Below, in pieces: positions 9,362 to 44,865 of a stretch of DNA of 44,865 nt. Source of the DNA: Bacteroidota bacterium (GTDB lineage: Bacteria > Bacteroidota > Bacteroidia > Bacteroidales > JACABE01); NCBI GenBank assembly GCA_013377005.1, contig JACABE010000032.1, forward strand, positions 1 to 44,865. Direction: 5' to 3'. Numbering within the stretch: position 1 is the stretch's first letter; each line of letters starts with the position of its first letter. Both the position numbers and the translations under genes were made by a program. The notes below the pieces were generated by a model that was not told where the DNA came from, did not search any database, and was given only the letters and a program-made list of their open reading frames with translations.

Positions 9362-9366
9362 CCAAT

Positions 9367-9736: not shown

Positions 9737-9781
9737 TTTATTTAACTTCATTAAAAACAAGTATTGCTTGTTAAGTCTGTA

Positions 9782-10273
9782 TTACTTCTCTAATTCCATA
9801 ATTTCTAAATCTTTAATATCTTTACCATCAATAGTAAAGCGCACCAACGTTATTACTCTGTGAAACCCATATTTTCCGGCAGCACCCGGATTAATATGTA
9901 ATAATTGATTTTTTTGATCGAACATTACTTTTAAAATATGTGAATGACCAGAAATAAACAATTTAGGCTTTTCAATTTTAATAATATCTTTAATGGGAAA
10001 AGCATATTTTCCGGGATAGCCACCAATATGAGTCATTAATACTTTAACTTGCTCACAAAAAAATAATTGTTTCTCAGGATATATTTTTCTGAGTAATTGA
10101 TCGTCAATATTCCCATATACAGCTATTAAAGGCTTAAAATCACTTATATTTTCCGCAACAGATAGATTCCCAATATCGCCGGCATGCCAAATTTGATGGC
10201 AATCCTTGAAAAAATCAAATATCTTGGGATGAACAAAAGTATGTGTATCAGAAAGCAATCCAATATTGGTCAT
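9782..10273 (-). CDS. YfcE/MJ0936-family metallophosphoesterase
   Basis: A 163-residue calcineurin-like phosphodiesterase or phosphatase. The metal-binding motifs are complete: DTH at residues 9-11, HAGDIGN near 31-37, VYGNID near 54-59, THIGGYPG near 82-89, and SGHSH near 109-113. The small size and the LSDTHTFVHPKI start fit the YfcE group, which hydrolyses phosphodiesters in vitro and whose physiological substrate is unknown. Cytosolic: no signal peptide. It is transcribed away from the DMT transporter gene from a promoter that overlaps the other gene's promoter (see 10322-10347). Confidence 0.85.
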   Translation of the reverse strand: MTNIGLLSDTHTFVHPKIFDFFKDCHQIWHAGDIGNLSVAENISDFKPLIAVYGNIDDQLLRKIYPEKQLFFCEQVKVLMTHIGGYPGKYAFPIKDIIKIEKPKLFISGHSHILKVMFDQKNQLLHINPGAAGKYGFHRVITLVRFTIDGKDIKDLEIMELEK

Positions 10274-10321
10274 AAAAATAGGGCTTATGAGATTTTAACA
10301 GGCTTGTATTGCATTTTTCTA

Positions 10322-10347
10322 TAATTTTGCAACAATTTACAAAATTA
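10322..10347. promoter_or_regulatory. Overlapping opposed promoters (phosphoesterase and transporter)
   Basis: TAATTTTG at 10322-10329 on the plus strand and its exact inverse CAAAATTA at 10340-10347 (TAATTTTG on the minus strand) are separated by 10 bp. Each matches the -7 consensus and points at the other. Predicted start sites are about 10336 rightward and 10333 leftward, so each transcript would cross the other promoter's -7 element. Confidence 0.5.
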
Positions 10348-10377
10348 TCATTTATTACTTATCAAACCCCAATTTTA

Positions 10378-11316
10378 TTGAAAACCGATAAAAAATACTT
10401 TATATTTTTACTTGCCATTTTATCCATGCTATTTTGGGGAATGTCGTTTGTTTGGACTAAAATTGTATTGGAATTTTATGCTCCTATTACAACTATTTTT
10501 TTACGATTATTAATTTCATCTATAGTATTATTTGTTGTTCTAAAACTTACAAAACAACTCCAAAAAGTAAAGAAACAACATTATGGATTGTTTCTTATAT
10601 CAGCATTTTTTGAACCACTTTTATACTTTTTAGGTGAAAATTTTGGATTAAGAGAAGTTTCGTCAACTATTGCATCTGTAATCATTGCTACTATTCCAGT
10701 AATTACACCAATTTTTGCACATTTTTTATTAAAAGAAAAAATTTCAATTTTCAATATCTTAGGAATCGTTATATCATTCTTAGGTATAATAATAATGATT
10801 TTTGATAGAAACCTTAACTTTACAGCTTCACCAAAAGGTATTGCACTTCTGTTTGTTGCCGTTTTTTCAACAATTGGTTATGCTGTTGCTATAAAGAAAT
10901 TAGCTGCAATTTACACTTCACCTACTATCATTACTTTTCAAAATATTATTGGAATATTTTACTTTTTACCATTATTTCTTATTTTTGATGCGAAAGATTT
11001 TTTAATAATCACTCCGTCATTTAAAGCTATTGCAGCATTGGTTCAATTAGCAATATTTGCATCTTCATTGGCTTTTATTTTTTACATTCACGTTGTAAGC
11101 AAATTAGGTGTAAGTAAGGCTAATATATTTACTAATTTAATCCCTATTTTTACTGCTGTTTTTTCCTATTTCTTATTAGATGAAAAGTTTAATGTTGTAA
11201 AAATAATTGGTATTGCAATTGTAATTGGTGGAGTTTTTCTTTCACAAATTGACAAACTTATTGTAAGCTATAACAATGGTAAGCAATTGAAAAACAAGTT
11301 GGGAAAAGGAAAATAA
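10378..11316 (+). CDS. DMT-superfamily (EamA) transporter
   Basis: A 312-residue inner-membrane protein with about ten transmembrane helices in two EamA repeats, the architecture of drug/metabolite transporters that export amino acids, nucleosides or other small metabolites. Typical signatures are LFWGMSFVWTK in helix 1, an EPLLYFLGENFGL segment in repeat 1, and SKLGVSKANIFTNLIPIFTAVFSYFLLDEK in repeat 2. The frame extends to a TTG at 10309, but that lies upstream of the -7 element at 10322-10329 and adds a non-typical segment. The TTG at 10378, giving MKTDKKYFIF about 40 nt after the predicted transcript start, is the better choice. Substrate cannot be predicted. Confidence 0.82.
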   Translation: MKTDKKYFIFLLAILSMLFWGMSFVWTKIVLEFYAPITTIFLRLLISSIVLFVVLKLTKQLQKVKKQHYGLFLISAFFEPLLYFLGENFGLREVSSTIASVIIATIPVITPIFAHFLLKEKISIFNILGIVISFLGIIIMIFDRNLNFTASPKGIALLFVAVFSTIGYAVAIKKLAAIYTSPTIITFQNIIGIFYFLPLFLIFDAKDFLIITPSFKAIAALVQLAIFASSLAFIFYIHVVSKLGVSKANIFTNLIPIFTAVFSYFLLDEKFNVVKIIGIAIVIGGVFLSQIDKLIVSYNNGKQLKNKLGKGK

Positions 11317-16782: not shown

Positions 16783-19700
16783 ATGAAAAAACTATTATTC
16801 TTATTAATTGCGACATTTTTCTTAGCTACAAGTTCATGGGCACAACTTACAGGAATAAAAACTATCCCTGGAACTACTGGTTATAACACTATTAAAATGG
16901 CTATTGATTCATTGAATGCAAAAGGTGTTGGCACAGAAGGTGTTAAGTTTAATATAACTACAGGACACACGGAAATAGCTCCTTCTGGCGGATTTGTTAT
17001 CACTGCTACAGGAACAGCAGTAAATCCTATTATTTTTCAAAGAAATGGAACTGGAGTAAATCCTATAATAACAGCTGGAATTGGAACAGGTACAACTGAT
17101 GCTATTATTAAAATTACGGGTGGAGATTATATAACTTTTGATGGAATTGATCTTAAAGATACTACCTCTAATACCACTGCTACCACCCAAATGGAATGGG
17201 GGTATGCTTTAGTAAAGAAACAAAACACCGCTCCTTTCGATGGTTGTCAATTTGTAACTATTAAAAATTGCTCAATTAGCTTAAATAAATCAAATACAGT
17301 TTCTGTTGGTATTTATGCAGGAAATCATATTGCCACAGCAACAACAGCTCTAACAATTACAGCTACTACAGATGCTATGAATAATTGTAAGTTTTTTAAT
17401 AATATTATCTCAAATGTTTATAGTGGTATTTCTGTTACTGGTTATGGTGCAACAACTAATCTAACATTATATGATTCAAACAATGAAATTGGTGTGGATG
17501 GAGCAAATATTATTACTAATTTAGGTGGTGGTAGTGCTATTGTTAGAGGAATTTTTGTAGTAAATCAAAAAGGCTTAAAAGTAGCTAATAACATTATAAA
17601 TTCTTCAATAGCAGGACTAACTGGCGCTGGTTTCGGAATTTTTACTACAAACGGGACTTCTTCAAATGTGGATATTTATAATAATACGATCACCCTAACT
17701 GCCAAAACTGGTACTTTTACTTCAACTCTCACAGCCATAAGTAATACAATGGGCAGTACTGCAGCCTCAAACACAGTAAACATATACAATAATACAATTT
17801 CAAATTGTAATTTATCAGCAGCTACTAGTGGTAGTTTTATTGGTATCTCAAACACGGGAGCTGCTGCAACTGTAAATATTTATGGCAATATTATAAACGG
17901 AGATACTTTAGCTGGAACTGGTAGTTTTACCGGTATTAATAACAGTGCTGTTATGGGGACAAATCCTTTAAATATTTACTCAAATGTAATTACCAATAAT
18001 GCTAAAACAGGTGCCAGCGGTAATATGTATTGCACCCAAGCAAATACGGCAACTATTGATTTTTACTCAAATATTATTCACGATAATTCTGCTACAGGGA
18101 CTACAACATTTTATGGATATTATAACTTCAGTGCTGCTGTTTCGGAAACTTATCGCAATAATACCATATACAATTTAACTCATAGCGGAACAGGAACATT
18201 AATTGCCTTTAATGATTCTACATCAACTGGTACAAAAAACATTTTTGGAAATACAATTTATTCTTTAAACTCTGGCGGAAATGTGACAGGCATGTTTTTT
18301 AAAGCGGCTACAGTTGCAAATATTTATAAAAATAATATTTATAATTTAAGCACAAGTGGGTCAGCATCTCAGTCGATAGGTATTACTTATACAGGAACTA
18401 CTGGTAATATTTATAACAATTATATATCCGATATCAAAGCAACAGCATCATCACACGCAACTGGAGTAATTGGCATTAACCTTGGAGGTAACACTCAAAA
18501 TCTTTATTATAACACAATATATTTGAATGCTATCAGTTCTTCTTCAACTACTTTTGGAAGTGCCGGTATTTATAAATTAGCAGTGACAGTAGGCGATTTT
18601 AGAAATAATATTATTGCAAACAACTCAACTGCAGGTTCTACTGGATTTACTACAGCATTCAGACTATCAGGAATATATACTGCATCTAATTATGCTGCAA
18701 CGTCTAATTACAATTGTTTTTATGCAGGAACTCCTTCAACAAGCAATTTAATTTTTTATGATGGTACAAACGCCAGTCAAGTTCTTGATTCTTTCAAAAC
18801 AATTGCAACAGGAAGAGATATAGCGTCTATTAGTCAATTGCCTCCTTTTGTAAACACTACGTCAACACCATACAATCTTCATTTACAAACTACCATTTCT
18901 ACTGGTTGCGAAAGCGGTGGTATTAGAATTACATCACCAGCTATTGCTGATGATTTTGATGGCAACATTCGCTGGGGTGAACCCGGATATACAGGAACTG
19001 GCTCTACAACTGATATTGGGGCAAATGAATTTGAAGGAAAGCCTATTTACACATGTACCACACCTAATCCCGGCAATTCTGTTGCTTCAGCTAATACTTT
19101 ATGCTTAGGAAATTCAACTGTACTTTCATTACAAAATTTAAGCTCAGGAACCGGGATTAATTACCAATGGAAAAGCTCTATCGATAGCATTACTTATACT
19201 AATATTTCCGGTGCTACAGCTTCAACATATACTGCAACTCCACTAACTCCTACTTTTTACAAATGTGATGTTACATGCCCAAATGGTCCTATCACTACAA
19301 CTTCTAATCCTGTTAAAATTATCTTTTCTTCAAGTATTGCTTCAACTACTCCAGGATCTCGTTGCAATTCAGGAACTGTAAGCTTAGCTGCAACAGCTAA
19401 TGGAACAGGCACTTTGGTTTGGCACACAACCGCATTTGGTGGAGCTCCAATTGGAACAGGTTCTCCATTTACCACACCTACAATTACCGCAACAACTGAT
19501 TTTTATGTAGGTACTGAAACTTATTCTCCTAATACAGCAATTGCCATTGGAGCAGGTGCTTCAACTTCTTCTGGATTTCCAAATCCGTTTTATTCTGACA
19601 AAAGCAATATCCATACACAACATTTAATTACTGCAGCCCAATTACAAGCAGCAGGATTAAGTGCAGGGAATATTACATCAGTGGCTTTAGATGTTACATC

Positions 19701-22700
19701 TATAGGCACTTTACCAATGATTAATTTATCTGTAAAAATTGGCACTACTACTGCAACTAGTTTGACTACTTTTGCTTCTAATACAAGTTTTAGCACAGTT
19801 TATACAAATGCTTCTTTAATGCCAACCTTAGGCTCAAATGTGTTAACCTTTACGACACCTTTCAATTGGGATGGTGTTTCAAATATTGTATTGGAATTTT
19901 GTCATGGAAATGCATCTTCTACTGCAGCTATGAACAGAACTATAAAAACTGATGCTACAGCTTATGTTTCGTCTATTAAAACAAGTTTAATATCAGCTGC
20001 TGATTCCGCTACGATTTGCAGTGATGTAGCAAGTAATTTAGTTTCCTACTCAGAATGTCCTAAATTTGTGTTTACAGGACGAGCTGTTTGTTCTAGTCCT
20101 CGTGCAAAAGTAAGTGCTACAATAACTCCTGCCCCAGTTCTATCAATAACAGCCAATCAAACAATTTGTAATAATACTATCACAAGTTTAAAAGTAATTT
20201 CCGATACTAATAGTTATAACTCTTATATTTGGACTCCTTCCACAGGATTATATACAAACTCTACAGCTACGACAGCTTATGTAGCTGGAGCAAGTGCCAC
20301 TACTGTTTATGTAAAATCCGCTACTCCGGTTGTTACAACTTACACATGTTCAGCCTCCAATGCATTTTTTTGTGCAAATACAGCAACATCTACTGTAGCT
20401 GTGTTACCAGCAAGTCCCACTATTACAGCAGTGTCATCTCCAATATGTGGAAGTGGCAGATCTCTATTATCAGTTTCTCCATCCACAGGTTATGGTGATG
20501 CTACATTTCAATGGAAAAGCTCTTCAGATAGCATAACTTTCACCGATATTATTGGACATACCACACTAAATGATACAACAGCAATTATTAGTTCAAAAAC
20601 ATATTATCAATTAATTATTAAAGATGGAACGGGGAATACATGTGTTCAACCTTCAGTAAGTGTTGCAGTAAATAATCCTCAGGTTTTAACTACAGCAGGA
20701 GCAAACCGCTGTGGACCAGGCACTGTTAATCTTGCAGCAACTGCAAGTTCTGGTACCACTTTAAGATGGTATTCCACTTCAACTGGTGGTAGTAGTATAG
20801 GAACAGGAACAAGTTTTACAACTCCAATTATTACAAGTAATACAGATTATTATGTTGCTGCAGATTTTAATAATACAGCAACAACAGCAACTATTGGCAA
20901 TGGAATAGCGACTGCATTTGGCACTTACACTCCATTCTGCCATACTTATGGCGGTAGTAAAACTCAATATCTTTTTACTGCAGCTGAATTAACTTCAGCA
21001 AATATTAAAGCAGGATCCATCAATGGATTGAGTCTTTTTGTTACTGCAATGGGAATAACATACAATGGATTTTATATCCAAATAGGCAATACTACTCTAA
21101 CTAATTTTACATCAACAGCAAATATTCTTGGTGGTTTAACTACTGTTTATAATTCAGCAAGTCTCACTCCTACAGTTGGTACAAATAGCTATACTTTTTC
21201 AACACCATTTATTTGGGATGGTACTTCAAATATTGTTATCTCTTTAAGTTGGAGCAATACTAATGGAGGAGGAAGTTCTGCAACTGTAAAAGTAGATCCA
21301 ACAACAAATTATTCAAGTCAAGGTTACAACAAGGATAATGAAACATCTGCAAATATGCTAGCATTTACAGGTTCTGTAGCTGGAAGTGGCACATTATCAA
21401 CTTCTCAAAACAGGCCTCAAATTAGATTTAATTACACACCTATATGTTCAAGTGCACGTTCTACTGTATCTGTTATCTATTCAGCACCTCCGATTCTTAG
21501 TCTTAGTGCAAATCAAACCATTTGCAGTAATTCAATTTCATCATTTTCTGTAACATCACCTTTGGCAAATTTCAGCTCTTATACATGGGTCCCTATAACT
21601 TATCTATATACAGATAGTTTATGTACAATCCCTTATACTGCATCGGCAAGTGCTACAAAAGTTTATGCTAAACCAACTTCAAGTGGAAAGATTGATTACA
21701 CATGTACAGCAAACAACTCCTCGTCACTTTGTTCAAATTCAGCTACAGTAACACTTACAATTAATCCAACACCAACTGCATTAGCTATTACACCATCTTC
21801 TTCTACGATTTGCCCAGGTATAATTCAACCTTTAACTACCAATGGAGGAACTATAACAAATGCAGTATTATTTTCAGAAAACTTCAACGGGACAACCAAT
21901 AATTGGACAACTTCCAATACATCCACAGGAACAAGTCCAACATCTGCTGATTGGAAATTAACAACAGATGGTTATTTTTATAGTAGTTATGGAACATGGC
22001 ATAGCAATGATAATTCTCAATTTTACATGTCTAATAGCAATGCCAGTGGAACTGGTTCTAAAACAACAACTACTCTAATTAGCCCTTCTTTTAATACAAC
22101 AGGATTTTCCTCATTAGCATTAAAATTTTGGCATTATTATCGTTACAATACTGACAGTGCAATGGTTGAAATTTCTACTGATAGTTCTGTTTCTTGGACT
22201 CCTTTAAAAGTATATAAATCAACTCAAGGTAATATATCTGCTTTTGTTAGAGATTCTATAGATTTTTCTTCCTATATAAATCAACCTAATGTTAAAATCA
22301 GATTTAATTATTATGATGCAGCTGGTTATTTTTGGGGAATTGATAATGTAAGTATTACAGGAAACCAAAACACTTCTATTGTATGGTCACCAATTACTGG
22401 ATTATTTGCTGATACTGCAGCAACTATTCCATACTTAACAGGAACGAGTGCTTCAAAAGTTTATTCAAAACCAACATCAAATATAACATACAATATTATT
22501 GCTACTAATGCAGTACTTTGTTCCAGTTCAGGTAATTCATCAATAACAGTTAATGCACTACCTGCCAATGCAGGTGGGATCTCTGGAACTACTTCTACTG
22601 TATGCCAAGGAGAATCTGGTTTTGTATATAATGTTCCGACAATTGCTGGAGCAACATCTTACACATGGTTATATTCTGGTTCAGGAGCAATAATATCAAC

Positions 22701-24996
22701 TTCATCCAATAGTGCAACTGTTAATTATTCAGCTACAGGAACTACAGGAAATCTAACTGTTGCTGGTCATAATACTTGTGGTGATGGGGTATTTTCTGCA
22801 AACTTTCCTATCACAGTAAATCCAATACCAGTTACAGGTGGTACAATATCCGGAACGGCCAGTGTTTGCCAGGGAGCAACAAATATTGTGTACTCAGTTC
22901 CTGCTATTGATCATGCAACTTCTTATGAATGGTCATACTCTGGAACCGGAGCTAATTTTACTCCAATTACAAATACTGATAGTGTAATTATAAGTTTTAC
23001 ATCTACTGCAACACTTGGTAATTTAAAAGTTAGAGGTAAAAATGCTTGTGGAAATGGTTTATATTCTGCTAATTATTTTATTACAGTAAATCCATTTCCA
23101 TCTGCCGCAGGAACAATCTCTGGTTCTGCAACTGTTTGCCATGGATATAATAATGTTGTTTACACAGTTCCTGCTATAAATAGTGCCACATCTTACATTT
23201 GGTCATATTCAGGAACAGGTGTTACTTATACAGCAAATACAACAACCAATACTGTTTCTATTAGTTTTTCAGCAACAGCAACTATTGGTAATTTAACAGT
23301 ATTTGGTCGTAATGCCTGTGGAGATGGTATTATTTCTGCAAGTTTTCCTATTACCTTTAGCAATATTCCTGCTGCTGCAGGAACTATTACTGGTACTTCT
23401 GTAGTATGTCAGGGGCAAAATAATGTTGCGTTTTCAGTTCCTGCAATAACAAATGCAACTTCATATAATTGGTCATATTCAGGTGCTGGAGCAACGTATT
23501 CTGGAAATTCCAATAATATCACTATTAGTTTTTTACCAACTGCTTCATCGGGGAATCTAACAGTATCAGGTCATAGTAATTGCGGTGATGGAATCATTTC
23601 AGCTAGCTATCCTATTACAATTAATCTTTTACCTGTTGCTGCTGGAACAATATCAGGAACAGCTTCTGTATGTCAAGGCGTAAGCAATATTACTTATACT
23701 GTTCCTGCTATCTCAAATGCGCTAACTTATACTTGGGCATATTCTGGTTCAGGAGTAAATTTTTCACCAACTACAACTACAAATAATAATACTATTAATT
23801 TTTTATCAACAGCAACCTCTGGTAATTTAACTGTAAAAGGACACAATGCTTGTGGTGATGGTATTATTTCTGCAAATTATTTTATAACTGTCAACATCAC
23901 ACCTGATGCAGCAGGAGCTATAACAGGAAATGCCGCAGTTTGTGCGGGAGAAACAAATATTACTTATCATGTACCTACTATTTCTGGTGCCAATTCCTAT
24001 GTTTGGAATTATTCAGGTACAGGTGCAAGTTTTTCACCATCAGCCACTACCAATGCAGATAGTGTTACTATTAGCTTTAGTACTTCAGCAACGACAGGAA
24101 GTTTAACAGTTAAAGGGCAAAATAATTGCGGATATGGTGTAGTTTCTGCAAACTATCTTATAAATGTTAACGGAATTCCTGCTGCAGCAGGAACTATAAT
24201 TGGACCAACTACTGTTTGTCAAGGACAAGATAGTATAATTTTTAAAGTTCCCAGTATTTTAAATGCAACATCTTATATTTGGTCTTATTCAGGTGCCGGA
24301 GCTAGTTTTACACCAACTACAACTGAGGATAGTGTAAAAATCAGCTTCTCTCCAACAGCTACACAAGGGAATTTAACTGTAAAAGGCTATAGTATTTGTG
24401 GTAACGGAATTCTCTCAACTAATCATGCTATTCATGTTAATCCTCTTCCCGGAAATGCAGGAGTAATAACTGGACCGCAATATGTTTATAAAGGATACTC
24501 CAATATTAAATTTAGTGTTCCTGTAATTTCGGGTGCGAGCTCTTATGTTTGGTCATATTCCGGAACCGGTGTTACTTTTGTACCACCATCAGGAATAACT
24601 ACAAATGATACTATATGGCTCAACTTTAGTTCAACGGCAACATCTGGAAACTTAACTGTTACAGGTCAAAATTCATGTGGAGATGGAGCTGTTTCTCAAA
24701 ATGCTTATATTGCAGTTTTCCCTGTTGGTATTGATGATCTTGGTAATTCTTTAAATTTTCAAATTTATCCTAATCCAAGTAAAGGTATAATTACTGTTAA
24801 TATCAATGATATAAATAGTAATTTAGATTTACAGATTACAAATATTCAAGGCAAAGTAATTCATAAAGAAACGCTTACTAATGATAAAACATCTTATACC
24901 CAAGATATTGATTTAACAAGCTATCCTAAAGGAATATACTTTGTAAAAATTATCAACAAAGACTTTACTAAAGTTGAAAAAATTGTTCTTCAGTAA
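16783..24996 (+). CDS. Giant T9SS-secreted beta-helix/Ig-like/PKD-like repeat protein
   Basis: A 2737-residue exported protein. Signal peptide at residues 1-20 (MKKLLFLLIATFFLATSSWA). Residues about 20-750 are a Ser/Thr/Asn-rich right-handed beta-helix of parallel strands (recurring xIYNNTIxN motifs), ending in DIGANEFEG. Residues about 757-846, 1121-1210, 1215-1300 and 1570-1663 are Ig-like domains with TICxx starts. A module of about 265 residues occurs twice (852-1116 and 1303-1566). A jelly-roll-like domain of about 175 residues is inserted into a third Ig-like domain (1666-1926). Eight PKD-like repeats (1930-2648) and a T9SS type A sorting domain (about 2655-2737, FQIYPNPSKG, YPKGIYFVKI) follow. 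No catalytic motif is seen. A cell-surface adhesin or matrix role is the likeliest reading, but no ligand can be named. Confidence 0.85.
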   Translation: MKKLLFLLIATFFLATSSWAQLTGIKTIPGTTGYNTIKMAIDSLNAKGVGTEGVKFNITTGHTEIAPSGGFVITATGTAVNPIIFQRNGTGVNPIITAGIGTGTTDAIIKITGGDYITFDGIDLKDTTSNTTATTQMEWGYALVKKQNTAPFDGCQFVTIKNCSISLNKSNTVSVGIYAGNHIATATTALTITATTDAMNNCKFFNNIISNVYSGISVTGYGATTNLTLYDSNNEIGVDGANIITNLGGGSAIVRGIFVVNQKGLKVANNIINSSIAGLTGAGFGIFTTNGTSSNVDIYNNTITLTAKTGTFTSTLTAISNTMGSTAASNTVNIYNNTISNCNLSAATSGSFIGISNTGAAATVNIYGNIINGDTLAGTGSFTGINNSAVMGTNPLNIYSNVITNNAKTGASGNMYCTQANTATIDFYSNIIHDNSATGTTTFYGYYNFSAAVSETYRNNTIYNLTHSGTGTLIAFNDSTSTGTKNIFGNTIYSLNSGGNVTGMFFKAATVANIYKNNIYNLSTSGSASQSIGITYTGTTGNIYNNYISDIKATASSHATGVIGINLGGNTQNLYYNTIYLNAISSSSTTFGSAGIYKLAVTVGDFRNNIIANNSTAGSTGFTTAFRLSGIYTASNYAATSNYNCFYAGTPSTSNLIFYDGTNASQVLDSFKTIATGRDIASISQLPPFVNTTSTPYNLHLQTTISTGCESGGIRITSPAIADDFDGNIRWGEPGYTGTGSTTDIGANEFEGKPIYTCTTPNPGNSVASANTLCLGNSTVLSLQNLSSGTGINYQWKSSIDSITYTNISGATASTYTATPLTPTFYKCDVTCPNGPITTTSNPVKIIFSSSIASTTPGSRCNSGTVSLAATANGTGTLVWHTTAFGGAPIGTGSPFTTPTITATTDFYVGTETYSPNTAIAIGAGASTSSGFPNPFYSDKSNIHTQHLITAAQLQAAGLSAGNITSVALDVTSIGTLPMINLSVKIGTTTATSLTTFASNTSFSTVYTNASLMPTLGSNVLTFTTPFNWDGVSNIVLEFCHGNASSTAAMNRTIKTDATAYVSSIKTSLISAADSATICSDVASNLVSYSECPKFVFTGRAVCSSPRAKVSATITPAPVLSITANQTICNNTITSLKVISDTNSYNSYIWTPSTGLYTNSTATTAYVAGASATTVYVKSATPVVTTYTCSASNAFFCANTATSTVAVLPASPTITAVSSPICGSGRSLLSVSPSTGYGDATFQWKSSSDSITFTDIIGHTTLNDTTAIISSKTYYQLIIKDGTGNTCVQPSVSVAVNNPQVLTTAGANRCGPGTVNLAATASSGTTLRWYSTSTGGSSIGTGTSFTTPIITSNTDYYVAADFNNTATTATIGNGIATAFGTYTPFCHTYGGSKTQYLFTAAELTSANIKAGSINGLSLFVTAMGITYNGFYIQIGNTTLTNFTSTANILGGLTTVYNSASLTPTVGTNSYTFSTPFIWDGTSNIVISLSWSNTNGGGSSATVKVDPTTNYSSQGYNKDNETSANMLAFTGSVAGSGTLSTSQNRPQIRFNYTPICSSARSTVSVIYSAPPILSLSANQTICSNSISSFSVTSPLANFSSYTWVPITYLYTDSLCTIPYTASASATKVYAKPTSSGKIDYTCTANNSSSLCSNSATVTLTINPTPTALAITPSSSTICPGIIQPLTTNGGTITNAVLFSENFNGTTNNWTTSNTSTGTSPTSADWKLTTDGYFYSSYGTWHSNDNSQFYMSNSNASGTGSKTTTTLISPSFNTTGFSSLALKFWHYYRYNTDSAMVEISTDSSVSWTPLKVYKSTQGNISAFVRDSIDFSSYINQPNVKIRFNYYDAAGYFWGIDNVSITGNQNTSIVWSPITGLFADTAATIPYLTGTSASKVYSKPTSNITYNIIATNAVLCSSSGNSSITVNALPANAGGISGTTSTVCQGESGFVYNVPTIAGATSYTWLYSGSGAIISTSSNSATVNYSATGTTGNLTVAGHNTCGDGVFSANFPITVNPIPVTGGTISGTASVCQGATNIVYSVPAIDHATSYEWSYSGTGANFTPITNTDSVIISFTSTATLGNLKVRGKNACGNGLYSANYFITVNPFPSAAGTISGSATVCHGYNNVVYTVPAINSATSYIWSYSGTGVTYTANTTTNTVSISFSATATIGNLTVFGRNACGDGIISASFPITFSNIPAAAGTITGTSVVCQGQNNVAFSVPAITNATSYNWSYSGAGATYSGNSNNITISFLPTASSGNLTVSGHSNCGDGIISASYPITINLLPVAAGTISGTASVCQGVSNITYTVPAISNALTYTWAYSGSGVNFSPTTTTNNNTINFLSTATSGNLTVKGHNACGDGIISANYFITVNITPDAAGAITGNAAVCAGETNITYHVPTISGANSYVWNYSGTGASFSPSATTNADSVTISFSTSATTGSLTVKGQNNCGYGVVSANYLINVNGIPAAAGTIIGPTTVCQGQDSIIFKVPSILNATSYIWSYSGAGASFTPTTTEDSVKISFSPTATQGNLTVKGYSICGNGILSTNHAIHVNPLPGNAGVITGPQYVYKGYSNIKFSVPVISGASSYVWSYSGTGVTFVPPSGITTNDTIWLNFSSTATSGNLTVTGQNSCGDGAVSQNAYIAVFPVGIDDLGNSLNFQIYPNPSKGIITVNINDINSNLDLQITNIQGKVIHKETLTNDKTSYTQDIDLTSYPKGIYFVKIINKDFTKVEKIVLQ
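22570..24726 (+). repeat. Eight in-gene PKD-like domain repeats
   Basis: Eight tandem units of about 88-92 codons with the pattern AGxISG, VCQG, VPxI, ATSYxWSYSG, NLTVxGxNxCGxG and a closing xITVN. The units differ at many positions at both protein and DNA level, so they are old duplications, not a recent expansion. Confidence 0.85.
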
Positions 24997-40200: not shown

Positions 40201-40453
40201 ATTCAAACAAATAATAACTATTTTCAACATTCGTTTTTAGAATTTTTATTACATTGGATTTACCTGAACCCCAGCCACCTTCTAATCCAATTATTTGAGG
40301 CAATTTAACTTTAGGATCAAGAAGGTTTAAATCATTAACCTTCTCAATATGCCTTTCAATAGCTTTTGCAACTCTTTCTGCTGATTTTCCTTCAAGAAAA
40401 TCTTTTCCTGTTGGTTTATTTTGAATAAATTTCGGGAATTCTTGTTTTTCCAT
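37235..40453 (-). CDS. KAP-family P-loop NTPase
   Basis: A 1072-residue KAP-type STAND-like ATPase. Walker A is GLEGGWGSGKSN at residues 56-67 and Walker B is LIVVFDNMDRL at 267-277. Two transmembrane helices (about 158-177 and 183-207) sit between them, a hallmark of many KAP proteins, so the ATPase is likely held at the membrane. The rest (about 340-1072) is all-helical with Leu/Ile-rich repeats and no nuclease or other effector motif that I can see. The KAP family includes the F-plasmid phage-exclusion protein PifA and components of reported defence systems, hence an antiphage or plasmid-derived role is possible. No qat-type partner genes are adjacent. Very AT-rich. Confidence 0.85.
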   Translation of the reverse strand: MEKQEFPKFIQNKPTGKDFLEGKSAERVAKAIERHIEKVNDLNLLDPKVKLPQIIGLEGGWGSGKSNVIKILKTNVENSYYLFEYDAWGNQEDLQRRSFLEQLTQKLIDENILDGETEITKRGGGKESVTWEKKLKYLLARKTETISEKYPRISNGMAASAIVAILTPIFVFIAYATKQSVNSWWSILLSILISMIPVLASIIMWRFACRKDHRYKDIGYLLAIYNDKIENDVNYETISEDEPSVTEFKNWMNDISDFIELNQRKKLIVVFDNMDRLPSEKVKDLWSSIHTFFSEDGYKNIWVIIPFDKIHLANAFNDGKKVNDSEKKALTCQFIIKTFPIIYRVSAPVLTDRKDIFYKFFDEAFGTTQDDCKEEIQRIFSLIRINYTPRDIISFINELVSLKLTWINEIPLIPIAIFILRKEEILEDSVDDNILSKKYLGSIEKNVDDTEELQNYISALVYGIDVISAAQIALKQYLRNTLKGDEKVDINKYSGNKHFISILKEEAREVDYTFIDKAIISLSKLTNSNNNEIIKIWNDFNKIKLTTKIDKLEFADTHKYLLLYTDNENKINLVQYLCASYQEFNEFKGDLFYTIMQLFEKFISENKLDINIANFLTPKQVTPEVFIEYLNIAKADFLKYKIYSDNKIFDEYLARSVPATLPKMDFIKFLVKDDLYKFDVLNTTIENAITEDIVDINGFPEIINVYKLISKEKPLKIQFTQSQIQSLLTFITDKTTDTYYDLVAIGLTLSINTTLIEGLDEKIAERIEYYSSYGELLLLSVNWSSVLLDNVVKKLTEKSYGISKMSIVKVLPFYEQIKSKIGVDDTILLNRFNPWCKFAKESITVANIDSIIPQFDFYKNSATILNDLTNYINSVAIERMKNISIEELYANRNIGTYYWLNCATIFIQENVLKTLPDNLIDLSKMILADIAKDSTILPLNNFLEIIINKANKSKLLATIISLGEDFCNKTPIINTVQFIYFTTKFDFINKIKNKDGAITRNILNIVINDSECLNLILENSTEYAKIINKAESEAEDFKANIKKIMQTNESEQLNKFAFAIGISFEEEKKDKE

Positions 40454-40562
40454 TATTAATTTGTATTATTCATTTTATATAATGAGGCATAACATTATTC
40501 TAACCTTACCAAATCAATTACAAGTCTGCTAAATTTGGATGCTATGCAAAGCTTTTGAAAAT

Positions 40563-40609
40563 GATATTTTTCTAAGAAATCTTCAATAATAATTTCTTAG
40601 AAAAATATC
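40563..40609. terminator. Perfect 18-bp inverted repeat between the KAP and 40630 genes
   Basis: GATATTTTTCTAAGAAAT (40563-40580) and its exact complement (40592-40609) flank an 11-nt loop. It begins 20 bp after the stop of the minus-strand gene at 40630. AT-rich with T-rich sequence on the 3' side in the minus direction, so terminator is the simplest reading. Confidence 0.6.
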
Positions 40610-40629
40610 CCAACTATATCCATCCCCAC

Positions 40630-41595
40630 TTAAATAAACGCAATTTCTACTTCCACATCAGCAGTTGTATCTTTATTTACGAAGATGATATATTTGTTGC
40701 CGGTTCCTAAGGTGGAGGCGGCTATTTCTACTTCTTCGTCGGGTAATATTTCGTGCAAGGTAGCGGGTACTGCTGCATCGGCAGTGGCTGCTGCATAATA
40801 AAATATAGATACGGTGCTGCTGTTGTTTGTTATCAGCAACACATCTTTTGAGGTAAAGGTAAAGTTGGCGGCTATATGGGTAGCGGCTAATATTTTAAGC
40901 AGATACAATTGATTGTCATCGTTGGTTTTGGTTTTACGATGGGGTGTAATCAGCTTGTCGTTAAAGAGCGTTAATAATACATCGGGTTGGTCGGGGTTGC
41001 TTAAAATAATGGTACAAATATTTTTTAGTATTTGTTTGTCGATTAGTTTTTTCTTGGTTTTGTAGTCGGGTATAATGCTCTTAACCTGTGTTTGTGTTGA
41101 TTTTTGTTTATTGAAAGTATCGAGATATTTTAATTTTACATTTTTAAAACCAACTGCAAAAGCAGAACCTAAAGCAGTATCGAATTTTTGGCCTTGTTTT
41201 TCCATTAATTCCATGTCTTCTTTAATGGTTTCAATGGTTGCTTTTTTAAAAATACTTAATCCTTTGGGGAAGACTTCTTTTTGTTCTTTTGAATTCTTTT
41301 TGAATTTTAAGATTAAAGCTGCATCAAATGCATCGATTAAATCGAAATACTCATCTTTTACATCATTTACATCTTTGGTAAGGTTTACTTGCTTGCTCAG
41401 GTTTTGTTTGCGTTGCGATATATCGCTAAAAACTTCGTTGTAAAGTTTTTCCGACTCGGTAATGATAGCTGTATATTCCGGCTTGTTTGTAGCTTTCATA
41501 CTCTGGATGTGCTCGTACAGAAATTCAGCAATGGACGATCTTCCTACTCTTGCATTTTCGGTAGGAGAAACTGTGAAGCTTTCAATTTTTCCCAT
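40630..41595 (-). CDS. Protein of unknown function, helical with beta-rich C terminus
   Basis: A 321-residue protein with no signal peptide. Residues 1-210 are charged and mostly alpha-helical (TNKPEYTAIITESEKLYNEV, KKNSKEQKEVFPKGLSIFKK); residues about 225-321 are beta-rich and Ala/Thr-rich (FTFTSKDVLLITNNSSTVSIFYYA, HEILPDEEVEIAASTLG, NKYIIFVNKDTTADVEVEIAFI) and might form a beta-sandwich. I recognise no family. The C-terminal third has visibly more G and C than the neighbours. ATG start. It lies 176 bp from the KAP gene with the 18-bp hairpin between, so cotranscription with KAP is doubtful; upstream is the repeat-rich region. Confidence 0.65.
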   Translation of the reverse strand: MGKIESFTVSPTENARVGRSSIAEFLYEHIQSMKATNKPEYTAIITESEKLYNEVFSDISQRKQNLSKQVNLTKDVNDVKDEYFDLIDAFDAALILKFKKNSKEQKEVFPKGLSIFKKATIETIKEDMELMEKQGQKFDTALGSAFAVGFKNVKLKYLDTFNKQKSTQTQVKSIIPDYKTKKKLIDKQILKNICTIILSNPDQPDVLLTLFNDKLITPHRKTKTNDDNQLYLLKILAATHIAANFTFTSKDVLLITNNSSTVSIFYYAAATADAAVPATLHEILPDEEVEIAASTLGTGNKYIIFVNKDTTADVEVEIAFI

Positions 41596-41880
41596 AATTT
41601 TTTTAATTTTAAATTGTTAATATTTTGTTTAGGCTACAAAGAAAATAATTTTTTTTGATATACGAATGTTTTTTATAGAAAAAATCATAGGTTTTAACAA
41701 AATATTTTTAAACTAAAGCACAAGCTATTGATATACATATATATCAACATTTGAAAATAGGGCTAAAAAAAGAAAAACAGCCAGGTATTGTTTTTTTTAT
41801 CAGCCGGAGAAGCCAAGTTATTTGATAGTAATTTTAATTAAGACTTTGTAAACGTATAATACCGTATTCACATTTCTGAC
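41596..41880. other. Non-coding stretch upstream of the 40630 gene
   Basis: About 285 bp with no gene; AT-rich near 41640-41790 and without a perfect TAnnTTTG for the minus strand. TTTCTTTG near 41636-41643 is the nearest match. Confidence 0.4.
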
Positions 41881-41888
41881 CAAGCTTT

Positions 41889-42112
41889 GCAGACTTGCGA
41901 AGCTTTACTCACAAAATTGACTAAGCCTTTGCAAACTTGCGAAGCACTACTCACAAAAATAACCAAGCCTCCGCAAACTTGCGAAGCTCTACTCACAAAT
42001 TTGACTAAGCCTCTGCAAACTTGCAAAGCACTACTCACAAAATTGACTAAGCCTCTGCAAACTTGCGAAGCTCTACTCACGAAAATGACTAAGGCTTTGC
42101 AGACTTACAAAT
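41889..42112. repeat. 42-bp tandem repeat, five full copies plus a partial
   Basis: Units start at 41889, 41931, 41973, 42015 and 42057, with a partial at 42099. The core is GCAAACTTGCGAAGC, then TACTCAC and a CTAAGCC tail. Copies differ at a few positions each (for example GCAGAC at the two ends). Each unit can form a small hairpin (GCxxTTGC with GCGAAGC). Because 42 is a multiple of three, long open frames occur on both strands. Confidence 0.9.
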
Positions 42113-42248
42113 ACATAATTATTAACAAGATATGAAATCCTGCGAAATTTCTGTAAAAACGCAATATGGGATGGGGTGTTTTTTTATAATGGTGTTTGGC
42201 AGGAGGTTTATGAGGGGGAGGCAGATGTTATGACTGATAACTTTTGAG
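42113..42248. other. Non-coding stretch between the tandem repeat and the palindrome
   Basis: No gene is visible. It contains GGAGGTTTATGAGGGGGAG, whose near copy GGAAGTTTATGAGGGGTAAT occurs at 44101-44120, also downstream of a minus-strand gene. Confidence 0.4.
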
Positions 42249-42262
42249 GGTTTGCGCAAACC
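42249..42262. repeat. Perfect 14-bp palindrome GGTTTGCGCAAACC
   Basis: A fully self-complementary 14-mer, 18 bp after the stop of the isochorismatase-like gene, inside a longer imperfect inverted repeat (ATAAC at 42235-42241 side, GTTAT at 42266-42270). It may be a terminator core, a protein site or part of a recombination site. Confidence 0.6.
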
Positions 42263-42280
42263 GCAGTTATGAGCTGTACT

Positions 42281-42826
42281 TTATTCGTTTAAATATTGTT
42301 TAGTCAATTTAACTGTTGAGTAAAAATAATCTAAAGCAGCTAAAAAACTCTTTTGAACCTCTTTTGCTTTGACCTTTCGACCAATGATTTCGAGGTCTTT
42401 AGTTGCACAAGCATCTCCAATCACGGTACAATTAAATCCGAAATCTTTTGCTGCTCTTGCGGTTGCGTCAACACACATATGTGTCATCATCCCACAAATC
42501 ACCAAATCGGTTATATTATTGTTTTTTAAATAATCAAACAGCTCCGTTTCTCTGAAACTATTAGGATAATGCTTTATAATTATTTTTTCTTTTTCTAATG
42601 GTTTTACTTTTTTATGAATTTCAGCACCAATCGTATTGGGCAAGAAGAATGTTGCAGTTGGTTTTAGCGCAAGATGCTGAATGTGTATTATCGGCAATCG
42701 TTGTTCTCGAAATTTTTCAAGAATTAATCTCGCGTTATCACATGATTTATCTGAATCGACAAGTGTCATAGCTCCATTGTCGAAATAATCATTTTGAATA
42801 TCAATTATCAGTAAAGCAGTCATCAT
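42281..42826 (-). CDS. Isochorismatase-family cysteine hydrolase
   Basis: A 181-residue cytosolic hydrolase of the isochorismatase superfamily, which includes nicotinamidases and isochorismatases. The likely catalytic triad is Asp9 (LLIIDIQND), Lys85 (IIIKHYPNSF) and Cys118 (GMMTHMCVD). The THMCVDATARAA segment is the family hallmark. It lacks the extra metal-binding motif of classic nicotinamidases, so a small amide or ester substrate is likely but unknown. ATG start with MM at the N terminus. Its 5' leader is a near copy of the one in front of the SDR gene, suggesting shared regulation or a shared cassette origin. Confidence 0.85.
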   Translation of the reverse strand: MMTALLIIDIQNDYFDNGAMTLVDSDKSCDNARLILEKFREQRLPIIHIQHLALKPTATFFLPNTIGAEIHKKVKPLEKEKIIIKHYPNSFRETELFDYLKNNNITDLVICGMMTHMCVDATARAAKDFGFNCTVIGDACATKDLEIIGRKVKAKEVQKSFLAALDYFYSTVKLTKQYLNE

Positions 42827-42867
42827 TTTATTTTTTAGTATAGCCCATTACTTTTATATATGGAAAA

Positions 42868-42906
42868 CCTTACAAAGCATGTCCATATATGGATTGCTTT
42901 GTAAAG
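42868..42906. promoter_or_regulatory. Palindrome in the hydrolase leader (hairpin or operator)
   Basis: CCTTACAAAGCA on the left pairs with TGCTTTGTAAAG on the right around the self-complementary TCCATATATGGA. It lies just downstream of the predicted start site and so in the mRNA leader. Confidence 0.65.
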
Positions 42907-42928
42907 TTTTTATCAATTTATTATTATA

Positions 42929-42936
42929 CAAAATTA
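42929..42936 (-). promoter_or_regulatory. -7 promoter element of the hydrolase gene
   Basis: The minus strand reads TAATTTTG, a TAnnTTTG match. It lies about 103 bp before the ATG, leaving a leader of roughly 95 nt that holds the palindrome. Confidence 0.55.
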
Positions 42937-43063
42937 CTTTTTTTAAATTATCGTGTATTTGTTTAACAAATTTTCTAAAACATATTCATTACATACTAGT
43001 AAACAGCCTGAAGTTTCCGCATATTGTATGTTAGCTACATATCTTTTCAAATTAAAATGTACA

Positions 43064-43795
43064 CTACCAAGCTATGCGCACACCTTTGTGTACTAATTGT
43101 CCATTAGGAAACTGATCGCGAGCAATTGTCACCAGACTAACTACTGTACTTGCTCCCTCTTCAACTTCCATGGGGGCAGCATCTGAGCCAAGATCAGTCT
43201 TTACCCAACCCGGATGTGCAGCAGCTACTGCAATTCCCTTATCTGCCAGTGTTTTGGATTGAATTTGTGTAAGCATATTAAGACCAGCCTTAGATGTCGC
43301 ATATCCTACGGTCATGAATGACGAAATATATTGCCACATATTTTCAGCTGCATCAATAGAGCCTAATTGCGACGAAAGGTTAATTACCCTGGCGTCGTCA
43401 CTAACTGAAAGAAGAGGCACCAATGCTTCAGTAATTGCATAGGGGGCGATAAGATTGACTTCGAGTGTACGTCGAATCTTTTCCGAATTAGTTGGTTTTC
43501 CGTCCCATTCTAAAGCAATTCCGGCGTTATTTACTAATACGTCGAGCTTAGCATAATTCTTTTCAAGATACGTCGCAAGATTGGCTATATCGTCAGTATT
43601 TGTAACTTCAAGTGGCACCGTATGAGCATCGCAACCCGCTGCAATAAGCTCTTCAGCCGCCTTTTTGCCAGCCTTTTGGTCACGAGCAGTGAGCACAACT
43701 GTATATCCGAGCATACCTAGTTGACGTGCAATTTCCTTACCAATTCCTTTGTTTGCCCCTGTAATCAGGGCTACTTTTCCATTTTTACTTTTCAT
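43064..43795 (-). CDS. Short-chain dehydrogenase/reductase (classical SDR)
   Basis: A 243-residue NAD(P)-dependent oxidoreductase. The cofactor motif is TGANKGIG at residues 12-19, NNAG is at 89-92, and the catalytic residues are Ser141 or Ser142 (INLSSQ), Tyr165 and Lys169 (YATSKAGLNM). An AAHPGWVKTDLG segment follows, typical of carbonyl reductase-like SDRs. ATG start. The base composition is less AT-rich than that of the neighbours, which fits transfer. Substrate cannot be predicted. Followed by a TAGCTAAC-containing hairpin and preceded by leader copy B. Confidence 0.88.
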   Translation of the reverse strand: MKSKNGKVALITGANKGIGKEIARQLGMLGYTVVLTARDQKAGKKAAEELIAAGCDAHTVPLEVTNTDDIANLATYLEKNYAKLDVLVNNAGIALEWDGKPTNSEKIRRTLEVNLIAPYAITEALVPLLSVSDDARVINLSSQLGSIDAAENMWQYISSFMTVGYATSKAGLNMLTQIQSKTLADKGIAVAAAHPGWVKTDLGSDAAPMEVEEGASTVVSLVTIARDQFPNGQLVHKGVRIAW

Positions 43796-43868
43796 AATAT
43801 TATTCTTTTATTTATTTATAATTTCTTTTTTTATAAGCTTTGCAGCTATTTGTATATATAAGGAAAAT

Positions 43869-43905
43869 CTATACAAAGCATGTCCATTTGGACGGCTTAG
43901 TATAG
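43869..43905. promoter_or_regulatory. Palindrome in the SDR leader (hairpin or operator)
   Basis: CTATACAAAGCATGTCCA on the left and TGGACGGCTTAGTATAG on the right are near complements. It is the counterpart of 42868-42906. Confidence 0.65.
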
Positions 43906-43927
43906 TTTTTATCAATATATTATTATA

Positions 43928-43935
43928 CAAAATTA
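43928..43935 (-). promoter_or_regulatory. -7 promoter element of the SDR gene
   Basis: The minus strand reads TAATTTTG, a TAnnTTTG match, in the same place in the duplicate as 42929-42936. Confidence 0.55.
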
Positions 43936-44154
43936 CTATTTTTTAATTATCGTGTATTTTATTTAACAAAATTCCCAAACATATTAATTACTTAATTCAT
44001 TATATAATTATTGATTCTATTTCTTCTTTTGGGGTAGTTTAATGTATTCTTAAGATATAAATGCAAAAATGGAAGAGGTATTTTATCAACACTTTAGGTA
44101 GGAAGTTTATGAGGGGTAATGAACATAATACGAGTTAGCGGTTCATTGTTTTTA

Positions 44155-44373
44155 TTATTCAGTTTTTCCTTTGAATGTCATATAAATTGCCATCGCGTGT
44201 CCGTGTCCTAATTCATAGTCCTCTTTTAGCCAGTTAGTGATTTCGGTCGCTTTTATGCATGCTGTAAGTTCTCCATTTTTCAAAAAGCCTTTTTCCTCTG
44301 CAAGTTTTTTGAAATCGTCAGGGCTTTTACCTGTCTTAGCTTTTATATTGTCTATGTATGCTTGAAATGACAT
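44155..44373 (-). CDS. DUF4287 domain protein
   Basis: A 72-residue protein matching the DUF4287 pattern: SFQAYIDNIKAKTGKSPDDF, LAEEKGFL, CIKATEITNWLKEDYELGHGHAMAIYMTFKGK. The domain is common as a small stand-alone protein and in longer DUF5655-type fusions; its function is unknown. It starts 8 bp after the stop of the DUF1761 gene, so the two are translated from one message. A GTTAGCG heptamer on the plus strand lies 14 bp after its stop. Confidence 0.88.
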   Translation of the reverse strand: MSFQAYIDNIKAKTGKSPDDFKKLAEEKGFLKNGELTACIKATEITNWLKEDYELGHGHAMAIYMTFKGKTE

Positions 44374-44381
44374 AATTATTA

Positions 44382-44801
44382 TTATAAACTTGCAATAATT
44401 GCACCCATTGTAATCATTACAATAAATGAACTAACAGCTTCAAACAACCATAATTTGAAACTTCGCCCCATCCAAATAACCTCAATAGATGATGAAGTAA
44501 CTAAAAAACCTAACCATAATAATATAGCTAAAACTATTCCTCCCCAAATTCCCTTTTCAGCTAAATAAGGTGATGAAGAAACAAAGAAATATATAACCGC
44601 CATTACAAAAGCAGTTACAAATTGAACAAGTAAATTCCAAAGCATTTGAGGAATCATATCTTTAAATTTCTCGTTTCCTGTTGGATGAATATTTGCTAAT
44701 TTCATCCACAGTTTTCCAGCTATTGGTCCATGAAAAAGAAATCCAAGAACAAAAGCAGCCACTGTAGCAATACAAACTGCAATTAAATTGATTGAAGTCA
44801 T
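44382..44801 (-). CDS. DUF1761 family membrane protein
   Basis: A 139-residue protein with four predicted transmembrane helices (residues about 5-25, 58-78, 85-105 and 112-138). It fits DUF1761, with an N-terminal VAAFVLGFLFHGPIAGKLWMKLANI, a WNLLVQFVTAFVMAVIYFF helix, and a TSSSIEVIWMGRSFKLWLFEA loop. Function unknown; location inner membrane. It is followed closely by the DUF4287 gene. A GTTGTGC heptamer lies 20 bp upstream of its start. Confidence 0.85.
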   Translation of the reverse strand: MTSINLIAVCIATVAAFVLGFLFHGPIAGKLWMKLANIHPTGNEKFKDMIPQMLWNLLVQFVTAFVMAVIYFFVSSSPYLAEKGIWGGIVLAILLWLGFLVTSSSIEVIWMGRSFKLWLFEAVSSFIVMITMGAIIASL

Positions 44802-44865
44802 AGTTTCCTGTTTTTAACCCGTTGTGCATTTAGGAAAGATTTACTTTTAAATTGTTGGTAGGTCT

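What the first reader, a model, noticed from the sequence alone, without database searches (positions are those of the whole stretch)
42855..43991. Duplicated promoter-plus-palindrome leader in front of two unrelated genes
Two 137-138-nt segments exactly 1.0 kb apart share about four of five bases by eye, including the -7 element TAATTTTG, the first transcribed bases and a long palindrome in the mRNA leader (42868-42906 and 43869-43905). Arm bases have changed between copies while pairing is largely kept. This could be a common operator or structured leader controlling a hydrolase and an SDR together, or a mobile promoter element that travels with cassettes.
Basis: seen in the sequence. Interest (0 to 1): 0.62.

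Follow-up and report, generated by a model that had tools for sequence, protein, structure and literature searches.

The report
Orphan integron-like landing sites with promoters
The two look-alike stretches appear to be stray copies of a docking site where a bacterial recombinase inserts single genes, much as integrons do, and they point to a gene-capture system in the Bacteroidota that seems to have been overlooked.

Summary
The duplication is real: 42855-42992 and 43855-43991 are 86% identical over 140 columns. Best reading: both are attI-like recombination sites. A model built from four own-genome copies weakly (E 0.13) hit a sister genome, exactly at the stop codon of a tyrosine-recombinase gene. 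A second model found 13 copies in the own genome (7 in its training set); two new ones (C35, C40) still carry the last codons of such a gene. Window similarity stops 4-5 nt from the integron-type crossover (G^TT), and the bases after it are complementary to bases behind each gene, as in integron cassettes (12 loci, 0 of 100,000 permutations; a wider, model-anchored set is weaker, 540 of 100,000). Across the phylum, relatives of this recombinase are followed by TA[CT]A..AG^TT[AG] (replication set 23 of 28; shuffles mean 1.6, max 6), and near-identical sites precede unrelated cassettes. The recombinase resembles XerA/IntI but lacks the IntI-specific insert. So: an integron-like system with orphan, promoter-bearing attI copies. 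Catalysis, transcription and how the copies spread are inferred. The window's own crossover triplets are mutated.

The parts
42851..42992 (-). attI-like site A: promoter, palindrome and core ending ...TATATAAAAG^TAATGGGC; crossover point between 42851 and 42850
   Evidence: 86% identical to site B; member of the R1/R2 family, one member of which lies behind a recombinase gene in a sister genome
43850..43991 (-). attI-like site B: same architecture, ending ...TATATACAA^ATAGCTGC; crossover point between 43850 and 43849
42864..42910 (-). palindrome of site A (16-bp outer arms plus inner stem)
   Evidence: fold z -5.75 RNA, -6.85 DNA; arms covary across copies
43864..43910 (-). palindrome of site B
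   Evidence: fold z -4.16 RNA, -6.01 DNA
42929..42936 (-). putative -7 element TAATTTTG of site A (TAnnTTTG type; motif name recalled)
   Evidence: read in the sequence; similar promoter-like stretches at other loci; no transcript data
43928..43935 (-). putative -7 element TAATTTTG of site B
   Evidence: read in the sequence; no transcript data
42843..42850 (-). R'-like 5' end of the hydrolase cassette (TAATGGGC)
   Evidence: within a 16-nt stretch that is complementary at 13 of 16 positions to the stretch around 42266-42277
42281..42826 (-). cassette ORF: isochorismatase-family hydrolase, 181 aa
   Evidence: PF00857 E 9.4e-38
42266..42277 (-). R''-like site 3' of the hydrolase ORF (ACAGCTCATAAC)
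   Evidence: alignment AGTAATGGGCTATACT / AGTTATGAGCTGTACT
43842..43849 (-). R'-like 5' end of the SDR cassette (ATAGCTGC)
43064..43795 (-). cassette ORF: short-chain dehydrogenase, 243 aa
   Evidence: PF00106 E 3.6e-41
43030..43038 (-). R''-like site 3' of the SDR ORF (GTAGCTAAC), about 40 nt before the shared part of site A
   Evidence: TAGCTGCAAAGCTTATAAAA / TAGCTACATATCTTTTCAAA
44134..44144 (-). R''-like string 3' of the DUF4287 ORF (GAACCGCTAAC), upstream of site B; by eye only, no matching R' found
   Evidence: sequence; alignment A4
44155..44373 (-). DUF4287 ORF, 72 aa, possible cassette gene
   Evidence: PF14117 E 4.7e-24

Best explanation
Each 'leader' is an attI-like site: an inverted repeat (probable recombinase-binding sites) followed by a core such as TATATACAAG^TT at which single-gene cassettes are integrated. 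The site family belongs directly behind a XerA/IntI-like tyrosine recombinase gene, and copies have become orphaned and scattered in this genome. A promoter upstream of the inverted repeat would transcribe whatever cassette sits behind the site, so the repeat ends up in the mRNA leader. In the window, site B holds an SDR cassette and site A a hydrolase cassette. Shown by sequence: family membership, junction position, R'/R'' complementarity, recombinase adjacency in relatives, different cassettes behind near-identical sites with the change at G^TT. Inferred: that this recombinase family does the reaction, that the promoter is active, and how the sites spread (probably partly by recombination at secondary G^TT points, as C35 suggests).
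For: (1) R1, built only from A, B, C and E, hits G001:C308 9209-9331, which begins at the stop codon of the recombinase gene 9328-10755; the hit is weak on its own (36.8 bits, E 0.13 for that genome, second best there). (2) C35 and C40 in the own genome and C15 in G002, none used for R1 or R2, have the 3' end of such a gene upstream (TTTGATGATTTATAA or close; 0 of 500 shuffles each). (3) R'/R'' complementarity, matched vs mismatched loci: 12 loci, mean 16.6 vs 12.3, 0 of 100,000 permutations (loci and anchors chosen after I had seen the pattern by eye in several of them); 18 copies anchored by the model, 540 of 100,000; 29 recombinase-linked loci, 0 of 100,000, 11 of 29 above the 99th percentile of mismatched pairs. 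(4) C42 and C35 share a 118-nt block bounded by G^TT on both sides (2 mismatches in 123 shared positions), with different sequence beyond both ends. (5) Core motif within 200 nt after the recombinase stop: 16 of 30 (the set in which I saw it; upstream 0 of 29), 23 of 28 (replication; upstream 2 of 28; one of 29 loci dropped because the catalytic motif was not found), 41 of 77 named loci, overlapping the other sets (3 of 80 without the motif). (6) Of 45 locus pairs with >=75% identity in the 70 nt before the junction, 39 have sequence after it: 33 drop to 0.52-0.68 (random mean 0.57, 99th percentile 0.65), 5 stay identical (duplicate or near-identical records), 1 is 0.72 (the pairs are not independent). 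(7) Six loci are cut off by a contig end within 25 nt of the junction. (8) G001:C308 shows recombinase, attI, cassettes and attC-like hairpins in a row.
Against: The G^TT triplet is mutated in both window copies (G^TA; A^AT), so they are probably inactive now. No recombinase with this attI type was found in the window's own genome (96.85% complete, 92 contigs); its C42 recombinase has a different attI, and its C46 and C39 recombinases have no core motif behind them. Sites A and B carry no recognisable recombinase remnant, nor do 9 others of 16 copies tested. Copy C has no R'', E and G pair weakly, and the model-anchored test is much weaker than the hand-anchored one. No complete attC (right half) was found in the window. 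attC3 of G001 does not fold better than shuffles (z -0.72). 14 of 30 recombinase loci and 36 of 77 lack the core motif as I wrote it (a few are masked or cut short, a few show a variant by eye). No enzymology or RNA data.
Confidence: 0.82

Rival explanations
1. A cis-regulatory leader: a conserved hairpin in the 5' UTR (or an operator for one regulator) controls the hydrolase, the SDR and other genes as a regulon.
For: The sites lie upstream of an ORF in 18 of 22 copies examined; arms covary; hairpins strong in A, B and E.
Against: The named genes share no evident pathway; the hairpin is not significant in C, G, H, I and K; similarity stops at the cassette junction; comparable sites lie straight behind recombinase stop codons in many genomes; no Rfam match in 40400-44865. 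Regulation could still be a side effect.
Confidence: 0.08
2. A dispersed non-autonomous element (MITE or REP-like palindrome) that carries a promoter and inserts upstream of genes.
For: 13 copies at E <= 0.003 in one genome, 3 and 1 in two sister genomes; palindromic; one palindrome in opposite orientation at L040 178-340.
Against: In the aligned copies (A6) the shared part ends at or near the G^TT point; recombinase gene remnants flank three copies; comparable sites lie behind the recombinase in many genomes. Terminal repeats and target duplications were not searched for systematically; none was noticed.
Confidence: 0.05
3. Ordinary integron cassettes moved by a true IntI elsewhere in the genome or lost from the assembly; the XerA-like recombinase and its flanking sites are a separate element.
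For: Cassette ends and attC-like hairpins look like classical integron parts; one complete integron (Salinibacter ruber) and earlier integrase-only elements are reported for Bacteroidetes (PMC9024848, passage read).
Against: No TIGR02249 match over its cut-off in the five genomes searched. The best of these matches, including the array-linked recombinases, stop at model position about 176-183 and resume at about 232-246; some weaker Xer-like matches run to about 212-217. Cassettes with R'' partners begin directly behind the XerA-like gene in several genomes.
Confidence: 0.12

Closest known systems
Integrons (IntI, attI, Pc, attC cassettes; general features partly recalled)
   Same: Single-gene cassettes at G^TT; R'/R'' complementarity between cassette start and the site behind the ORF; attC-like hairpins; attI-like site next to a tyrosine recombinase; possible promoter at attI.
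   Different: The recombinase lacks the IntI-specific insert, is transcribed towards the cassettes with the attI-like site behind its 3' end, and often has N-terminal extra domains; the site often contains a long inverted repeat.
[quoted passage not shown] PMC8618304, passage read)
   Same: Cassettes without a neighbouring recombinase, as in the window.
   Different: In the window each of the two cassettes sits behind its own attI-like site with a promoter-like sequence.
Delta-attI-type gene cassettes of mobile integrons (PMC12901181, abstract and outline read)
   Same: An attI-derived site can serve as a cassette boundary and move; compare the C35/C42 block.
   Different: Described for IntI1 in clinical integrons; here a different recombinase and copies in Bacteroidota genomes.
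XerA / archaeal Xer recombinases (NF040815; PDB 5hxy, 4a8e)
   Same: Among the nearest in sequence and fold, together with IntI4 2a3v.
   Different: N-terminal extension, attI-like site and cassettes.
attG sites (secondary chromosomal cassette insertion sites; seen only in a search listing, otherwise recalled)
   Same: Cassettes at scattered places outside an array.
   Different: The sites here are one homologous family with palindrome and promoter-like sequence.

Membership tests
Integron | Tyrosine recombinase gene next to the insertion site | tested here: met
   In relatives: core motif after the recombinase stop in 23 of 28. The ORFs beside the two window sites are not recombinases.
Integron | IntI-specific additional domain in the integrase | tested here: not met
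   P0001-P0003 stay below the TIGR02249 cut-off and match in two pieces that skip about 180-238; 59 residues of IntI4 (182-240) face 17 in P0001.
Integron | Cassettes with R' at the start and complementary R'' behind the ORF, crossover at G^TT | tested here: met
   weaker
Integron | attC sites that fold as imperfect hairpins | tested here: inconclusive
   G001:C308 attC1 and attC2 fold better than 197 and 199 of 200 shuffles (z -2.9, -2.7), attC3 does not (z -0.7); no complete attC found in the window.
Integron | Promoter at attI that expresses the cassettes | not testable with these tools
   TAnnTTTG-type element in A and B by sequence only.
Integron | Recombination activity of the integrase on attI and attC | not testable with these tools
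   none
Riboswitch or other known RNA leader | Match to a curated RNA family | tested here: not met
   Rfam 15 over window 40400-44865: only two sub-threshold matches, both outside the two segments.
CALIN | Cluster of attC sites without an integron-integrase | tested here: inconclusive
   R''-like halves at 42266-42277, 43030-43038 and (by eye) 44134-44144; IntegronFinder's attC model was not available.

The most novel reading that the evidence does not exclude
A second lineage of integrons spans the Bacteroidota (with relatives in Chlorobium), run by XerA-like integrases that lack the IntI insert and often carry N-terminal extra domains, with an often palindromic attI behind the integrase gene. 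In some genomes, as here, attI has multiplied into a dozen or so promoter-bearing landing sites around the chromosome that can be filled in trans: a distributed integron. Surveys that require the IntI domain would record its cassettes as CALINs.
Probability: 0.5. Interest if true: 0.88.

Novelty: new variant of a known kind. Interest (0 to 1): 0.74.

Why it matters
Surveys identify integrons by the IntI-specific domain (PMC9668308 and PMC2426708, passages read). For Bacteroidetes proper, the passage read of IntegronFinder 2 names one complete integron, in Salinibacter ruber (PMC9024848). If a XerA-like enzyme does the same job, a large phylum has a gene-capture system that such surveys would miss, and the IntI insert, described as necessary for integron recombination (PMC9668308, passage), would have an alternative. 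The scattered promoter-bearing copies would give cassettes several expressed places. My eight literature searches listed no description of such a system, but only open-licence PMC papers were searchable, no preprints, and I judged by titles, abstract openings and a few passages.

Tried and rejected
Rfam on 40400-44865: nothing above threshold. Plain DNA search of 98 genomes gave, outside the own genome, mostly short matches at E about 1e-5 to 1e-3, largely over the promoter part; not counted as copies. The C32 copy (L004) shares only the promoter half. R1 matches at E 0.9 to 9 were not counted, except C1 (E 1.2), accepted on its palindrome, ending and R''. Searching with the downstream half of the C12 cassette gave few matches, but one led to the attC array in G001:C308. 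TIGR02249 for a true IntI: none over the cut-off in 5 genomes; the 14 control genomes also ring below the cut-off, so low-score matches mean only 'Xer-like'. Pfam on the N-terminal extension: nothing convincing. AlphaFold model: mean pLDDT 76, pTM 0.42, domain arrangement unreliable; Foldseek adds only that XerA and IntI4 are the nearest folds. An unanchored complementarity test was noisy and was replaced by anchored ones. The L269/L274 pair fits the core pattern through an inverted repeat of its own, probably not a real site. Three rows (a reverse-strand match, a match overlapping a known copy, the weakest row) were left out.

Full report
Observation. The two segments exist and are homologous: 86.4% over 140 columns, E 3e-36. 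On the - strand, the coding strand of both neighbouring genes, the order is TAATTTTG promoter element, palindrome, ORF. The palindromes fold better than all shuffles. Arm changes are partly compensatory over 10 copies, on a MAFFT alignment with a structure that I wrote from the copies: 81.7% of cells paired (2 of 500 shuffles), 4 of 11 pairs changed on both sides (23 of 500), covariation 0.202 vs 0.125 (0 of 500), slid controls 0.012-0.111; further pair types not in excess (389 of 500). Shuffles ignore relatedness, so this is support, not proof.

Copies. A DNA search of the own genome gave copies on C26 (two), C2, C12 and, promoter only, C32, besides a reverse-strand match of palindrome A. Model R1 (from A, B, C, E) added C22, C8 and G001:C352, then with laxer filters G001:C308 (E 0.13), G001:C84 (E 0.32) and C1 (E 1.2, accepted on its other features). 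Model R2 (palindrome and core of 10 copies) found 13 at E <= 0.003 in the own genome, 7 of them used to build it and 6 new (C35, C40, C2 twice, C23, C33), 3 in G001 (all used to build it), 1 in G002, and none at E <= 1 in G005.

What the site is. The R1 hit in G001:C308 begins at the stop codon of a tyrosine recombinase gene (L087 9328-10755, - strand) and the site ends ...TATATACAAG^TTATAGGGC. Three copies in neither model's training set (own C35, own C40, G002 C15) have the last codons of such a gene (F-D-D-L-stop or close) upstream (0 of 500 shuffles each). Of the other 13 tested, C8 is marginal (0 of 500, score 14 vs maximum 13), C1 weak (25 of 500), and 11, including A and B, show nothing. 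I therefore read the family as attI-type sites that belong behind a recombinase.

Cassette logic. Integron cassettes begin with TT-RRRY (R'), complementary to R'' behind the ORF (rule recalled). For 12 loci the bases at the leader end pair with the bases behind the ORF of the same locus better than with those of other loci (mean 16.6 vs 12.3; 0 of 100,000 permutations). Loci and anchors of that test were chosen after I had seen the pattern in several of them. It is clear in A, B, F, H, I, K and C308, moderate in D, weak in E and G, absent in C; for C42 the partner lies outside the stretch tested but is found. Examples: hydrolase AGTAATGGGCTATACT / AGTTATGAGCTGTACT; SDR TAGCTGCAAAGCTTATAAAA / TAGCTACATATCTTTTCAAA. 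With anchors set by the R2 model, 22 of the 25 rows were taken, 4 had no ORF, and the remaining 18 give a weaker result in the same direction (15.6 vs 13.9; 540 of 100,000); there the stop of the first gene of the two-gene C308 cassette was used, which hides its partner. Similarity between A and B ends 4-5 nt short of the junction.

Footprints of recombination. In the own genome, C42 (recombinase, attI, cassette) and C35 share a 118-nt block that begins at AAG^TTTGCAG inside the end of the recombinase gene and ends at AAACAAG^TT (2 mismatches in 123 shared positions). To its left lie the gene (C42) or a leader-type site (C35); to its right, two different cassettes. Among 96 recombinase loci with a junction located by an extended pattern, 45 pairs are >=75% identical over the 70 nt before it. 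Of the 39 with sequence on both sides, 33 drop to 0.52-0.68 after it (random mean 0.57, 99th percentile 0.65), for instance Cecembia rubra and C. lonarensis 100% before and 63% after; 5 pairs are identical throughout (the same or near-identical records), 1 is at 0.72. The pairs form clusters and are not independent. Six loci are cut off by a contig end within 25 nt of the junction, as expected if assemblies break where strains differ.

The recombinase. It is XerA/IntI-like: best solved relatives 5hxy, 4a8e and 2a3v; NF040815 222 bits against a cut-off of 220 for P0001, below it for the other two; TIGR02249 210, 165 and 198 against 265. Between the two matched pieces of IntI4 lie 59 residues, against 17 in P0001, so the IntI-specific insert is missing. 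R, K, H-x-x-R, H and Y of the catalytic domain (roles recalled) are invariant. The N-terminal 160 residues of the G001 protein are predicted as two EEHEEH units, with no Pfam assignment; many other family members are shorter (about 280-390 aa), so the extension is not universal. Relatives occur in 61 of 149 genomes of the order at E <= 1e-60, in 88 of 296 of the phylum at E <= 1e-75, and by record title among the 80 best loci in Bacteroidales, Flavobacteriales, Chitinophagales, Cytophagales, Chlorobium (60-61% identity) and Cyanobacteria (43-45%). The cyanobacterial loci do not show the core motif; two of the three Chlorobium-group loci with the long form do.

Its attI. Behind the stop codon many loci have an inverted repeat and then TA[CT]A..AG^TT[AG]: 16 of 30 in the set where I noticed it (shuffles mean 1.8, max 7; upstream 0 of 29), 23 of 28 in the replication set (shuffles mean 1.6, max 6; upstream 2 of 28; one of 29 dropped), 41 of 77 named loci, which overlap the earlier sets. 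Hairpin strength before the core: median z -1.6 over 85 distinct sites, 36 of 85 below -2, so it is a tendency, not a rule. R'/R'' test on 29 of 59 loci (those with core, >=1200 nt and no N runs): mean 19.1 vs 15.0, 0 of 100,000 permutations; 11 of 29 above the 99th percentile of mismatched pairs. Cassettes longer than about 1 kb or with degraded ends would be missed.

An array. In G001:C308 the recombinase is followed by the attI-like site, a two-gene cassette, an attC-like site (L087 7020-7158), a long stretch, a second (785-925), a one-gene cassette and a third (90-235). The first two fold better than 197 and 199 of 200 shuffles, the third does not.

Mechanism proposed. The recombinase binds the inverted repeat and the core, and inserts cassettes at G^TT; a promoter before the repeat transcribes them. 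Orphan copies arose by loss of the gene and perhaps by recombination at secondary G^TT points, as C35 suggests. In the window both core triplets are altered (G^TA, A^AT), so the two cassettes are probably fixed now, each behind a promoter-like sequence and a hairpin.

Literature. PMC8618304, PMC9024848, PMC9668308, PMC2426708 and PMC8138268: passages found by term search. PMC12901181: abstract and outline. Eight searches listed nothing that describes integron-like arrays run by recombinases without the IntI insert in Bacteroidota. PMC8138268 notes that the IntI insertion is 'not fully conserved' in its integron-like subgroup.

Verdict. A duplicated leader that turns out, most likely, to be part of an integron-like system. 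New variant of a known kind.

Noticed in passing
window 41877-42111: About five tandem 42-nt units (GCAAACTTGCGAAGC...) downstream of the hydrolase cassette; a different minisatellite (ATATCGAGAACTC...) lies in L040 2300-2600.
   Followed up: no
window 40563-40609 and 40500-40545: Inverted repeat ATATTTTTCTAAGAAAT...ATTTCTTAGAAAAATAT upstream of the KAP-NTPase ORF; next to it a stretch resembling L004 1440-1500 (possibly another repeated leader). Seen by eye.
   Followed up: no
window 44815-44835 and L003 2625-2645: Both contigs end near the shared string CCCGTTGTGCATTTAG, which may be a cassette boundary; contigs C35 and C42 also end in a common sequence (AATCGAGGTACTGTCTTAAAAAAC...).
   Followed up: partly
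L040 178-340: A related palindrome (perfect 12-bp arms GGTATACAAAGC/GCTTTGTATACC) in the opposite orientation, upstream of a 277 aa secreted-looking ORF without evident cassette ends.
   Followed up: no
L109, L111, L112, L114, L004: A long promoter-like stretch close to TTTGTTAAATAAAATACATGATAATAAAATAATTGTACATTTG recurs at other loci of this genome.
   Followed up: partly
window 16783-24996: 2737 aa ORF with seven direct repeats at about 270-nt spacing.
   Followed up: no
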